From: Opitutales bacterium
GTDB taxonomy: Bacteria > Verrucomicrobiota > Verrucomicrobiia > Opitutales > UBA2987
NCBI GenBank assembly: GCA_021772515.1
Contig: JAJFLU010000037.1
Location: forward strand, 1 to 64,000
Direction: 5' to 3'
Length of the DNA: 64,000 nt
Shown: positions 35,605 through 39,033 of the stretch, piece after piece
Layout: each line of letters begins with the position of its first letter
How positions within the stretch are numbered: the stretch's first letter is position 1
Translations under genes and position numbers: made by a program
The notes under the pieces: generated by a model
What the model saw: the letters and a program-made list of their open reading frames with translations, nothing else
Told to the model about the DNA's origin: nothing
Databases searched by the model: none

Positions 35605-35635
35605 AAGAAAGTGGCGGGATAGACGGGACTTGAAC
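35605..35635 (+). repeat. Left attachment repeat (remnant tRNA-Asp 3' end)
   Basis: Identical over 31 bases to 39003-39033: AAGAAAGTGGCGGGATAGAC then GGGACTTGAAC in both places. After that base the sequences part (GCGC here, CCGC at the tRNA). The intact tRNA is at the other end, so this is the copy left at the distal edge of the insert. Confidence 0.88.
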
Positions 35636-35645
35636 GCGCTTGCAT

Positions 35646-35714
35646 ACTTTCCAAGGCGTTCAAAGTGATAACAATCAAAGATTTATCTGCTCGAAGCAGT
35701 AAATCTTGGAAAGT
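35646..35714. repeat. Nested inverted repeats beside the left attachment repeat
   Basis: Outer arms ACTTTCCAAG (35646-35655) and CTTGGAAAGT (35705-35714) are exact complements, ten bases. Inside lies a hairpin of 8 + 5 bp with one bulged T (35678-35707; arms AAGATTTA-CTGCT and AGCAG-TAAATCTT). They directly precede the first plus-strand gene, so they could be integrase/excisionase sites, a regulator site or part of an origin. Confidence 0.6.
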
Positions 35715-35724
35715 CTAACGAATA

Positions 35725-35991
35725 ATGCCTAAAAAAGAAAATGCAGTAGAAGCGTTCCTTATGGCGGCCCGTGATGAATTGATGACGGTCGATGCCGAGG
35801 AAACGCTGGACAGAAAAATCAAAAGACTATGGATGTCGCTTGACCATCTGATCGAAGCGATGGATTCAATGCGGACAGAAATTGACTGCCTCGAATTCAT
35901 CAACCGTTCACTAAAAATCGACGGTTACAGGCACCCTGAGACGGAGGAAGAATTAAACCGTTTTGAAACTATCACGGGGGCGCGGCCATGA
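35725..35991 (+). CDS. Islet small protein 1, unknown
   Basis: 88 aa, mostly helical and acidic (EAFLMAARDELMTVDAEETLDRKIKRLWMSL...). No family recognised. The ATG at 35725 lies shortly after the hairpin block. Its stop overlaps the next gene's start by four bases (ATGA), so it heads a three-gene unit. Confidence 0.55.
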   Translation: MPKKENAVEAFLMAARDELMTVDAEETLDRKIKRLWMSLDHLIEAMDSMRTEIDCLEFINRSLKIDGYRHPETEEELNRFETITGARP

Positions 35992-36251
35992 TGTCGCGAT
36001 CAACGAAAGAGCGGTTAGGAAAACGCATTGAGTATAGCCGTGAAATAGTCCAGCAAGGCAATTTCGATAAGACTATTCCACAGTTAAGGCAAACGCATTG
36101 CATGGCTATGAATGAAATTATCGGTTGCATAATCACACTCATCGGGAGTCAACCGGAGAAACCGACCTCTGTGCAATGTCTGGAAGCTCAAATAGGACTC
36201 ATGCACGGGAGAATTCAGGAATTAGAAAGGCGCGACGATGTCAACCCATAG
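35988..36251 (+). CDS. Islet small protein 2, unknown
   Basis: 87 aa; basic at the N-terminus, helical, ending in a coiled-coil-like stretch (LEAQIGLMHGRIQELERRDD). No family recognised. Overlaps both the gene before (four bases) and the gene after (14 bases). Confidence 0.5.
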   Translation: MMSRSTKERLGKRIEYSREIVQQGNFDKTIPQLRQTHCMAMNEIIGCIITLIGSQPEKPTSVQCLEAQIGLMHGRIQELERRDDVNP

Positions 36252-36507
36252 CCACTCGGTCGAATCCCTCACGCGCTTGCGCCGGTCACAGGAATTATCA
36301 CGCGGTGCAGGGCGCGTCGCTCACAAAAACGGAATGCCGTGGTGGACAGCTTGGGCATGGTCATGCAATCAGTCTGGGACAACCGATCTGCCGGTCATCA
36401 AATCACTGGCGCGTGAATTCCTCATCGGATGGCGTGCCGAATACCTCAAAGCCAACGAAAACAAAGAACCGGAAGCGGTCACTGCGCAAATCGGCGAGCT
36501 TATCTGA
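36238..36507 (+). CDS. Islet small protein 3, unknown
   Basis: 89 aa. The middle is unusual, with a Trp-rich stretch (MPWWTAWAWSCN) followed by a helical part (LPVIKSLAREFLIGWRAEYLKANEN). No signal peptide or membrane segment is evident. Its stop faces the stop of the minus-strand gene four bases on. Confidence 0.5.
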   Translation: MSTHSHSVESLTRLRRSQELSRGAGRVAHKNGMPWWTAWAWSCNQSGTTDLPVIKSLAREFLIGWRAEYLKANENKEPEAVTAQIGELI

Positions 36508-36511
36508 AAAA

Positions 36512-36820
36512 CTAACTTTTCAGATAGCGGACAAAATTCGCCAAAGCCTCCGTCCCTTCATCTCTGAGCGCATAAATCATCTGCTTGACAACAAAAGATT
36601 CCTCCTCACTTAAAATTAGAGTAATCCGTTTCGGTTTCCTCGATGGCCGCCGATGGTGCGAGCCTAGAAGTCTAGCCGCTTCCCTTTTCTCAGCAGGCGT
36701 CGGGCCAGCAATGCGGAGGATTCGGGAAGCGGCGCGGCGTTCCTCCTGAGTTCCTTCCGGGGGAAGTTCTCTCCCTCGAATATCCGACGAACGCAAACTT
36801 CCAACGCTATCAACGCTCAC
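36512..36820 (-). CDS. Islet small protein 4, possible ribbon-helix-helix DNA-binding protein
   Basis: 102 aa. The first half is charged; the second half runs RRPSRKPKRITLILSEEESFVVKQM then IYALRDEGTEALANFVRY. A strand R-I-T-L-I-L followed by two helices resembles ribbon-helix-helix regulators, but the match is loose. It overlaps the gene upstream (36817-37041) by four bases. Confidence 0.5.
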   Translation of the reverse strand: MSVDSVGSLRSSDIRGRELPPEGTQEERRAASRILRIAGPTPAEKREAARLLGSHHRRPSRKPKRITLILSEEESFVVKQMIYALRDEGTEALANFVRYLKS

Positions 36821-37097: not shown

Positions 37098-38171
37098 CTA
37101 CTTCGGGCAAATACTCCAAAACCGCTCTGCCTCACCCTTCGACTTCACATCGAGGTAATACCGGCGGCAAACCGCTTCCGAATTACCAGCCTGAATCGCC
37201 GCGTCACCGACCGAGCGGTATTTCCCTACCAGCATCGAGATATAAGTATGCCGTAAAACATCATACCCAATCTCGAAACACTTCCGAATATCGAGCCGCA
37301 TCTTAGCAAACCCCGGCGGTAGAATCGGGAACCGCGCAAGTGGATACCTCTGCAACCAATCAGCCAGGCATTTTTCAATCCTCACATTCCGCTTCTCATT
37401 GACCTTAGATACCTCTGGCTCGACGTGGATCACACCAGTATCAAAATTGATATGCTTTTCGGTCAATTTCCCGATCTCCCCACTCTCCCAATCCGGTCGA
37501 ATTCCCGCGAAAAGACAAAGTGCGAAGTAATTGACCATGATTCCCCGATAGCGTTTCAAAGTCCTCTCCCGGCCAGAGTAGTCCTCAAGAAAATTCATCA
37601 ACTCAGCGCATTTCTCAGCGGACAGCGTCTCAGCGGTTCCTCGACGAAATCTCAAGCGATACTGCGGTAAAGACACGACAGGATTTCTGGTCACATAGCC
37701 TCTACGCTCACAGTAGCGGAAAAAGCTGTTCAGATACCCGCGTCGGTTATTCCAAGTCTTGAGCGACGAAGCCCCGACGCTCAAATAATCCTCAAGCCTC
37801 TCAGTATCGATTTCATCAACCATCGAATTCTCAAACCACTTCTCAAAGCGTCTCAATTCAACCCGGAAACTCAAAAAGTAGCGGCGAGCAATAATCCCCC
37901 GATCAACCTCCATAGAGCGGCGGCGCAAGTATTCATCACAAACATCGCTCACAAGCTTACGATGATCAAATTCCTTAAAGTTTCGCAGGAAAAAATCCAC
38001 TGCAAATTCAATCGATTTACCAGAAGGCTTCAAGCGATCAACGGCGTTCGACAAGTCGGTGTCAAAACGATCATCCACGGGACTAACCACTATCGACAAA
38101 GCCGCGAAAAACTTAATCACAAATACAGGGCGAGTCATACGGTTGTCAGTAACCAAGCGCGTCGGGCGCAT
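37098..38171 (-). CDS. int: Tyrosine recombinase / integrase of the islet
   Basis: 357 aa. The N-terminal half is the SAM-like core-binding region; the C-terminal half is the catalytic domain, with Arg225 in LFAGIRPDW, Lys256 in EVSKVNEKRNV, Arg307 in YDVLRHTYIS and a candidate nucleophile Tyr338 or Tyr339 in RRYYLDV. In the box that usually reads HxxR, an Asp (304) stands in place of His, and the later His/Trp position is Asn330 (AGNSEAV). I recall these variants in integrases of Verrucomicrobiota that end in RFW-I-P, and this one ends AERFWSICPK. It most likely moves the islet at tRNA-Asp. The start of the protein is uncertain; residues 20-30 are hydrophobic. Confidence 0.88.
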   Translation of the reverse strand: MRPTRLVTDNRMTRPVFVIKFFAALSIVVSPVDDRFDTDLSNAVDRLKPSGKSIEFAVDFFLRNFKEFDHRKLVSDVCDEYLRRRSMEVDRGIIARRYFLSFRVELRRFEKWFENSMVDEIDTERLEDYLSVGASSLKTWNNRRGYLNSFFRYCERRGYVTRNPVVSLPQYRLRFRRGTAETLSAEKCAELMNFLEDYSGRERTLKRYRGIMVNYFALCLFAGIRPDWESGEIGKLTEKHINFDTGVIHVEPEVSKVNEKRNVRIEKCLADWLQRYPLARFPILPPGFAKMRLDIRKCFEIGYDVLRHTYISMLVGKYRSVGDAAIQAGNSEAVCRRYYLDVKSKGEAERFWSICPK

Positions 38172-38261
38172 ACTCCGTGCCAGTCCTGAAATACAAGGAC
38201 TGTCACGCAGTATGCTTTATCCTTCCTCGCACTGCTGGCTCCTCGGATTAGAGTCAGGCGG

Positions 38262-38543
38262 CCCTGCTTAGACTGCCACAGATAGCCGCTCCGCTTCGCT
38301 CCCCCGTATCTGTGGCAGGCAGGGTTCCCTTTAGGCCGCTCCGCGCTCCTCCACTCACGGGCCCTTGCCCACGGTTCACATCGAATACCGGTGTAGGTTC
38401 CCCCGCTGTGCCCTGTTCCCCCGCGCCCCGCAACAATTGCCCGCTATTCAGTCCGGGCCGCGTTAAGATTTTTGGCGAAGGTGTCTATACCGGCGCGGCC
38501 AATATGTTTTTCCGTGCAGCTTAGACCCTGCGGGGCTGCACGG
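38262..38543 (+). ncRNA. Candidate structured RNA/DNA block with three hairpins
   Basis: A G+C-rich non-coding stretch. Hairpin 1: CCCTGC (38262-38267), bulge of five, CTGCCACAGATA (38273-38284) pairing with TATCTGTGGCAG (38307-38318) and GCAGGG (38319-38324), 18 bp in all. Hairpin 2: GGCCGCG (38456-38462) with CGCGGCC (38494-38500). Hairpin 3: CCGTGCAGC (38512-38520) with GCTGCACGG (38535-38543). The strand that is transcribed, if any, is not known. It could also be an origin or an antisense control region. Confidence 0.4.
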
Positions 38544-38630
38544 TGAGCGGGCTTGCGCGGGGAAGGGGAAAGAATAGACCTTCGGTGAGTCGGCTATTGC
38601 ATGACGGGAGAATCCACCGACCGCAAAAAC

Positions 38631-38748
38631 AAATCGATTATTCCTGCGCCCTCGATGCCGACCGGCGACCGAGCCCTCGATGCCGACTTGCGCAAATCGA
38701 TTATTCCTGCGCCCTCGATGCCGACTTACGCAAAATAGATTATTCCAG
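38631..38748 (+). repeat. Tandem repeats of about 38 bp (iteron-like)
   Basis: A 32-base word beginning AAATCGATTATTCCTGCGCC occurs without change at 38631-38662 and 38694-38725. The units GCCCTCGATGCCGACTTGCG (38673) and GCCCTCGATGCCGACTTACG (38711) show a period of 38-39 bases; three to four units are present, the outer ones diverged. There are no unique spacers, so it is not CRISPR. Such repeats suggest a protein-binding array, as in origins or partition sites. Confidence 0.7.
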
Positions 38749-38854
38749 CGACCGCGCCACGGCAACCGGCGACAGAGTGTGAACAAACTGTGAAAAGCGC
38801 GTGAATCGATTGAGCATATCTAACGCTTGAATTCGCAAACCATTGGTGCAAATT

Positions 38855-38900
38855 ATACACTGATGATGCGCGGCACAAAAAGCGCGAATCATCAGTGTAT
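38855..38900. repeat. Long imperfect palindrome in the islet
   Basis: Arms of 13 bp (ATACACTGATGAT / ATCATCAGTGTAT), one mismatch, then four more pairs (CGCG/CGCG), around a ten-base loop. It is not followed by a T run on either strand, so not an obvious terminator. Confidence 0.6.
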
Positions 38901-39002
38901 GGAAAAAACGCGCCACAGAAAAAATGAGCCAAGAAAGCGAAACAGGCCAAAGAAATCAACAAGAGCAAAAACACCGACCAAGAATAAGAAAACGTAATGC
39001 CA

Positions 39003-39033
39003 AAGAAAGTGGCGGGATAGACGGGACTTGAAC
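39003..39033 (+). repeat. Right attachment repeat (in intact tRNA-Asp)
   Basis: The matching copy of the 31-base repeat. It begins seven bases outside the tRNA 3' end and runs into the T loop, so integration leaves the tRNA gene whole. Confidence 0.88.

What the first reader, a model, noticed from the sequence alone, without database searches (positions are those of the whole stretch)
35605..39033. A 3.4-kb integrative islet at tRNA-Asp whose cargo is five unknown small genes and about 840 bp of structured non-coding DNA
Seen: 31-bp direct repeats, intact tRNA at the right end, integrase, two convergent sets of overlapping small ORFs, and no gene for replication, transfer, capsid or defence that I can name. 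An element this small with so much structured DNA is unlike known satellites that carry a recognisable primase or packaging gene. It may be a new class of minimal mobile islet or a satellite using a helper's functions.
Basis: partly seen in the sequence, partly recalled or inferred. Interest (0 to 1): 0.8.

Follow-up and report, generated by a model that had tools for sequence, protein, structure and literature searches.

The report
Tiny tRNA-Asp islet of unknown genes
A 3.4-kb piece of foreign DNA has inserted itself cleanly into a tRNA-Asp gene; it carries an altered integrase, five small genes found nowhere else and a repeat block that the host's own CRISPR memory nearly matches, so it is probably a very small hitch-hiking mobile element, or the recent remnant of one.

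Summary
The islet is real. A 3,398-bp insertion lies between an intact tRNA-Asp and its displaced 3' fragment; the tRNA's own terminator now sits at the far end. It holds a tyrosine integrase, five ORFans in two convergent runs and an 832-bp non-coding block.

New here: (1) The integrase belongs to a tRNA/tmRNA-targeting family of the host's order, but it alone lacks the N-terminal arm-binding domain, and it starts 838 bp from the tRNA where 21 of 23 relatives start within 94 bp. (2) The block's repeat matches one spacer (33/37) of a type I-G CRISPR array in the same genome and nothing else in 177 genomes of the order; its seed is mismatched and the expected TTN PAM is absent. A sibling with this repeat has therefore probably invaded the lineage. 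(3) The five small genes have no relatives in 388 genomes drawn from the phylum, 177 from the order, or the phage, plasmid and viral collections. (4) "Structured" holds for a few hairpins only.

Best reading: a non-autonomous hitch-hiker (0.5), likelier phage satellite than oriT-type, because its two best-read kin islets carry a tape-measure gene. Main rival: a decayed element (0.35). No helper was found.

The parts
39010..39086 (-). tRNA-Asp(gtc), intact; integration target
   Evidence: ARAGORN, Rfam tRNA
39003..39037 (-). right att copy (tRNA 3' end + 7 bp)
   Evidence: 35-bp direct repeat, 97%
35605..35639 (-). left att copy: displaced tRNA-Asp 3' fragment
   Evidence: 35-bp direct repeat, 97%; exact 31-bp core 35605-35635
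35567..35604 (-). native tRNA-Asp intrinsic terminator, now 3.4 kb from its gene (outside the islet)
   Evidence: inverted repeat I11 followed by T6; several relatives have a terminator directly after tRNA-Asp
35646..35715 (+). interrupted inverted repeat just upstream of gene A; possible operator or leader hairpin
   Evidence: DNA fold z -3.6
35725..35991 (+). small gene A, 88 aa, ORFan, possible coiled coil
   Evidence: ORF, codon use best of six frames, only sub-threshold Pfam DUF2205
35988..36251 (+). small gene B, 87 aa, ORFan; 4-nt overlap with A
   Evidence: ORF; no family match
36238..36507 (+). small gene C, 89 aa, ORFan; predicted all-helical
   Evidence: ORF, codon use, AlphaFold pLDDT 81, no fold match
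36512..36820 (-). small gene D, 102 aa, GTG start; C-terminal part possibly ribbon-helix-helix-like (inference)
   Evidence: ORF; helices 72-86 and 90-101 at pLDDT about 80; no fold match; codon use ambiguous
36817..37041 (-). small gene E, 74 aa, ORFan; 4-nt overlap with D
   Evidence: ORF, codon use best of six frames
37098..38171 (-). tyrosine integrase, 357 aa; catalytic R225, K256, R307, Y339 kept; N-terminal arm-binding domain missing
   Evidence: phrog_1 E 5e-17; alignment; tree
38172..39003 (.). 832-bp non-coding block between integrase and tRNA
   Evidence: no coding-like ORF, no Rfam, no plasmid DNA match; 21 of 23 relatives have 26-94 bp here
38630..38764 (+). direct-repeat cluster: two exact 33-bp copies and a degenerate third; near-protospacer of the host's CRISPR spacer
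   Evidence: repeats; spacer 33/37 at 38698-38734(-) and about 32/37 at 38635-38671(-) (from the alignment); motif unique in 177 genomes
38855..38900 (.). long hairpin, 18-nt arms, 10-nt loop
   Evidence: inverted repeat I1; DNA fold z -7.3
38176..38211 (.). hairpin immediately upstream of the integrase start
   Evidence: DNA fold z -3.8
38273..38318 (.). hairpin with perfect 12-bp arms
   Evidence: inverted repeat I10; DNA fold z -1.9
38512..38543 (.). hairpin
   Evidence: DNA fold z -3.3

Best explanation
A non-autonomous integrative element (a 'hitcher'). Shown: precise integration into the 3' end of tRNA-Asp, with the tRNA end rebuilt and the tRNA's terminator displaced. Inferred: its integrase (or a related one in trans) excises a 3.4-kb circle; D, possibly a small DNA-binding protein, regulates or directs excision; and the 832-bp block with its repeat cluster and hairpins is the cis signal (packaging, origin or transfer) by which a helper's machinery copies and moves the circle. 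A phage helper is judged likelier than a conjugative one, because the two best-read kin islets carry a phage tape-measure gene. A-B-C would act on helper or host; what they do is not known.
For: Clean ends and displaced terminator. The VWA-gene/tRNA-Asp neighbourhood is found in other genomes of the order without this integrase next to it. The integrase family sits beside tRNA or tmRNA genes in most relatives; catalytic residues kept. A spacer in the same genome's type I-G array matches the block's repeat at 33/37, with mismatches in the seed and no TTN PAM at either islet copy. Kin islets L026 (same genus) and L047 (9.65 kb, att-bounded at tRNA-Pro) encode a tape-measure protein, with no capsid or terminase recognised among their listed ORFs. 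Tightly packed reading frames, so no visible decay of the cargo.
Against: No second copy of the cargo or the block anywhere searched. The integrase has lost the arm-binding domain all full-length relatives have, nothing elsewhere in the islet makes up for it, and it departs from the family at 14% of near-invariant sites against 0-6% for all but one relative. No primase, AlpA or terminase family match. No helper: one terminase-portal remnant and no VirB4 above cut-off in the host genome; no similarity of the block to the four candidate partner regions tested.
Confidence: 0.5

Rival explanations
1. A decayed element: internal deletion and a rearrangement that replaced the integrase's 5' end with the non-coding block left a stranded 3.4-kb remnant that no longer excises.
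For: Missing N-terminal domain; block exactly where relatives have the integrase start; raised departure from near-invariant sites, including the residue before the nucleophile (H338Y); relatives' elements mostly extend beyond the fetched sequence, so are larger.
Against: att repeats still 34/35 alike; integrase frame open over 357 codons with catalytic residues kept; packed small ORFs without stops.
Confidence: 0.35
2. An oriT-only integrative mobilizable element (iOriT): the block carries an origin of transfer recognised by a relaxase encoded elsewhere. (A special case of the hitcher reading, so its confidence overlaps with that one.)
For: Integrase without relaxase plus a hairpin-bearing non-coding block fits the description in PMC11389934; a MobF relaxase gene lies on contig C56 of the same genome.
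Against: No similarity between the block and the relaxase region above shuffles; no VirB4 above cut-off in the genome.
Confidence: 0.1
3. The block encodes a structured RNA of unknown family rather than a DNA signal.
For: Whole-block RNA fold better than shuffles on both strands.
Against: Most 140-nt windows fold no better than shuffles; no Rfam match; no homologues, so covariation cannot be tested.
Confidence: 0.05

Closest known systems
tRNA/tmRNA-targeted genomic islands (Islander class, PMC4383910)
   Same: Integrase, intact tRNA, displaced 3' fragment in the same orientation, length above 2 kb
   Different: At 3.4 kb far below the 13.6- and 39.9-kb peaks reported there; nearly all cargo unknown
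PICMI phage satellites (PMC10803314)
   Same: Very small, integrase-bearing, large non-coding stretches, genes overlapping by 4 nt
   Different: No alpA, no primase, not at fis; int does not overlap its neighbour
Kin islets L026 (G031:C18, tmRNA) and L047 (G082:C1, tRNA-Pro, 9.65 kb)
   Same: Same integrase family and tRNA/tmRNA targeting; small unknown genes
   Different: They carry a tape-measure gene and an XRE-like regulator; their integrases keep the N-terminal domain
iOriT integrative mobilizable elements (PMC11389934)
   Same: Integrase without relaxase, non-coding block that could hold a transfer signal
   Different: No oriT demonstrated; no helper identified

Membership tests
tRNA-integrated genomic island | Intact tDNA plus displaced fragment in the same orientation | tested here: met
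tRNA-integrated genomic island | Tyrosine integrase within the interval | tested here: met
   N-terminal domain missing
tRNA-integrated genomic island | Length 2-200 kb | tested here: met
   3,398 bp; limits from PMC4383910
tRNA/tmRNA integrase family of the host's order | Core and catalytic domain homology, nesting in the tree | tested here: met
   54% to L027 and to the L026 integrase; inside a 12-row set supported 97/91
tRNA/tmRNA integrase family of the host's order | N-terminal arm-binding domain | tested here: not met
   absent from the protein and from all six frames of the islet; present in 21 of 21 full-length relatives
PICMI | int, alpA and primase, integrated next to fis | tested here: not met
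   no alpA or primase match; site is tRNA-Asp
PICI / cf-PICI / P4 / PLE satellites | Recognisable primase, regulator, packaging or capsid genes | tested here: not met
Phage satellite in the functional sense | DNA packaged in particles of a helper phage | not testable with these tools
   no helper, no reads
iOriT integrative mobilizable element | Functional oriT matching a helper relaxase | tested here: inconclusive
   block against the MobF relaxase region no better than shuffles; other helpers unknown

The most novel reading that the evidence does not exclude
A functioning hitch-hiker at the lower size limit, with no primase, excisionase of known type, terminase or relaxase, moved by a helper that recognises only its non-coding repeat block, and driven by an integrase that works without its arm-binding domain; host CRISPR immunity selects on that block.
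Probability: 0.15. Interest if true: 0.75.

Novelty: new variant of a known kind. Interest (0 to 1): 0.45.

Why it matters
If mobile, it sets a lower bound on what an integrative element needs (integrase, a few small proteins, one cis block), and the matching CRISPR spacer ties its non-coding block to past invasion. It also points to a family of tRNA/tmRNA islets in this order, some carrying a lone tape-measure gene, that I did not find described in the few literature searches made.

Tried and rejected
Family libraries (Pfam, PHROGs, NCBIfam, PADLOC) for all five small proteins, and PDB sequence and fold searches for C and D: nothing above noise. Weak phylum and order hits to the small proteins: the three loci read closely were matches out of frame or antisense to longer open frames, taken as chance. 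A 19-mer of the repeat hit 10 genomes, but the similarity stops at or soon after the 19-mer: chance. Rfam, block against plasmids and islet against phages: nothing. Block against the C40 terminase region, C56 relaxase region and kin elements L026/L047: no better than shuffles. Promoter and terminator scan: no excess over shuffles. A-E as pieces of the fetched kin elements: no similarity found.

Full report
WHAT IS THERE. tRNA-Asp(gtc) lies at 39010-39086 on the minus strand. A direct repeat, exact over 31 bp and 34/35 over 35 bp, joins 39003-39037 to 35605-35639, 3,398 bp away. Between them: A, B and C (+), E and D (-), an integrase (-) and 832 bp without a coding-like ORF. The left copy is followed, outside the islet, by an inverted repeat and six T; at the equivalent tRNA-Asp of several relatives a terminator follows the tRNA directly. 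Joining the flanks in thought gives an ordinary tRNA-Asp with its terminator, which is the mark of a clean insertion. The neighbouring VWA-like gene lies next to tRNA-Asp in about half of the 30 loci fetched for it, and in none of these except the window itself does this integrase show within the fetched flank; G054 (L029) has a family member at its tRNA-Asp next to the same gene.

THE INTEGRASE. It is a tyrosine recombinase (phrog_1) of a family with members in 25 of 177 genomes sampled from the order. Most sit beside a tRNA or tmRNA gene. The catalytic residues R225, K256, R307 and Y339 are kept. The tree places it inside the family, yet it lacks the N-terminal arm-binding domain that all 21 relatives with a full N-terminus have, and a profile of that domain finds nothing in any frame of the islet. 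In 21 of 23 relatives the integrase starts 26-94 bp from the tRNA; here it is 838 bp. The simplest reading is that the block replaced the integrase's 5' end. At near-invariant columns it departs 11 times in 77; all other relatives but L047 (10 in 73) depart at 0-6%. That fits relaxed constraint without proving loss of function.

THE SMALL GENES. A, B, C, D and E match no family in four libraries, no genome in samples of 388 from the phylum and 177 from the order (beyond chance-level hits), no phage or plasmid record and no viral contig by the close-relative scan. The reading frames are more than chance for A-B-C (0 of 1000 shuffles); D and E are less certain. AlphaFold from single sequences gives a helical C (pLDDT 81) and a low-confidence D whose last 30 residues are two helices at about 80; neither has a fold match. 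That D is a ribbon-helix-helix protein is inference from its sequence.

THE BLOCK. Folded whole it beats shuffles (z -4 to -5), but in 140-nt windows only the region around 38855-38900, and weakly 38172-38311 on the plus strand, stand out. Individual hairpins at 38176-38211, 38512-38543 and 38855-38900 are strong as DNA. So 'structured' means a handful of hairpins and a repeat cluster, not a continuous structure.

THE CRISPR LINK. Contig C63 of the same genome is a CRISPR array with the repeat that follows type I-G cas genes on C56. Its spacer 12 matches the islet's repeat at 33 of 37 positions (38698-38734) and, by my count on the alignment, 32 of 37 (38635-38671); no other spacer exceeds 25 anywhere in the window. 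The 27-nt core, with up to three mismatches allowed, occurs only in the islet (twice) and in the spacer among 177 genomes. Mismatches cluster in the PAM-proximal part and neither copy has the TTN PAM reported for type I-G (PMC9638904). I infer that the spacer was taken from a sibling element and that the resident copy is not efficiently targeted.

KIN. L026 (same genus, at tmRNA) and L047 (9.65 kb, bounded by a 25-bp tRNA-Pro repeat) share the integrase family and carry a phage tape-measure protein, with small unknown genes and no capsid or terminase that I recognised in their ORF lists; the far end of L026 was not found. Other relatives carry helicases or other genes and mostly run past the fetched sequence. 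This tilts the guess towards phage-related transfer.

HELPERS. The host genome has one terminase-portal cassette at C40 40.4-45.7 kb between ordinary genes, looking like a remnant (only one terminase family was tried), and no VirB4 above cut-off. A MobF relaxase gene lies on C56. The block resembles neither region beyond shuffles. The assembly is 94% complete, so a helper could be missing from it.

VERDICT. A genuine, very small tRNA-Asp islet; probably a hitch-hiking element, possibly already decayed. A new variant of a known kind.

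Noticed in passing
L076 (G000:C63) and L091 (G000:C56): Type I-G CRISPR-Cas locus (Cas7g, Csb2, Cas3g, Cas4g/Cas1g, Cas2) with at least two array pieces; one spacer nearly matches the islet.
   Followed up: yes
L026:3076-5724(-); L047 element: Kin islets at tmRNA and tRNA-Pro carry a phage tail tape-measure protein with no capsid or terminase recognised in their ORF lists.
   Followed up: partly
L077:10777-10812 (G000:C36:44776-44805): Orphan tRNA-Asp 3' fragment (28/30) next to an SPFH-like gene, with no integrase among the listed ORFs.
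   Followed up: partly
G000:C40:40425-45651 (L171): Small terminase-portal-like cassette between ordinary genes; looks like a phage remnant.
   Followed up: partly
L091:1021-1872: MobF relaxase gene of 283 aa, followed by SSB-like and AbiE-like genes, upstream of the cas genes.
   Followed up: partly
window 38899-38997(+): 32-codon ORF for a very basic peptide (MEKTRHRKNEPRKRNRPKKSTRAKTPTKNKKT) right after the long hairpin; codon use does not favour coding.
   Followed up: partly
window 39270-40292(+): VWA-like gene beside tRNA-Asp, an arrangement seen in many genomes of the order.
   Followed up: partly
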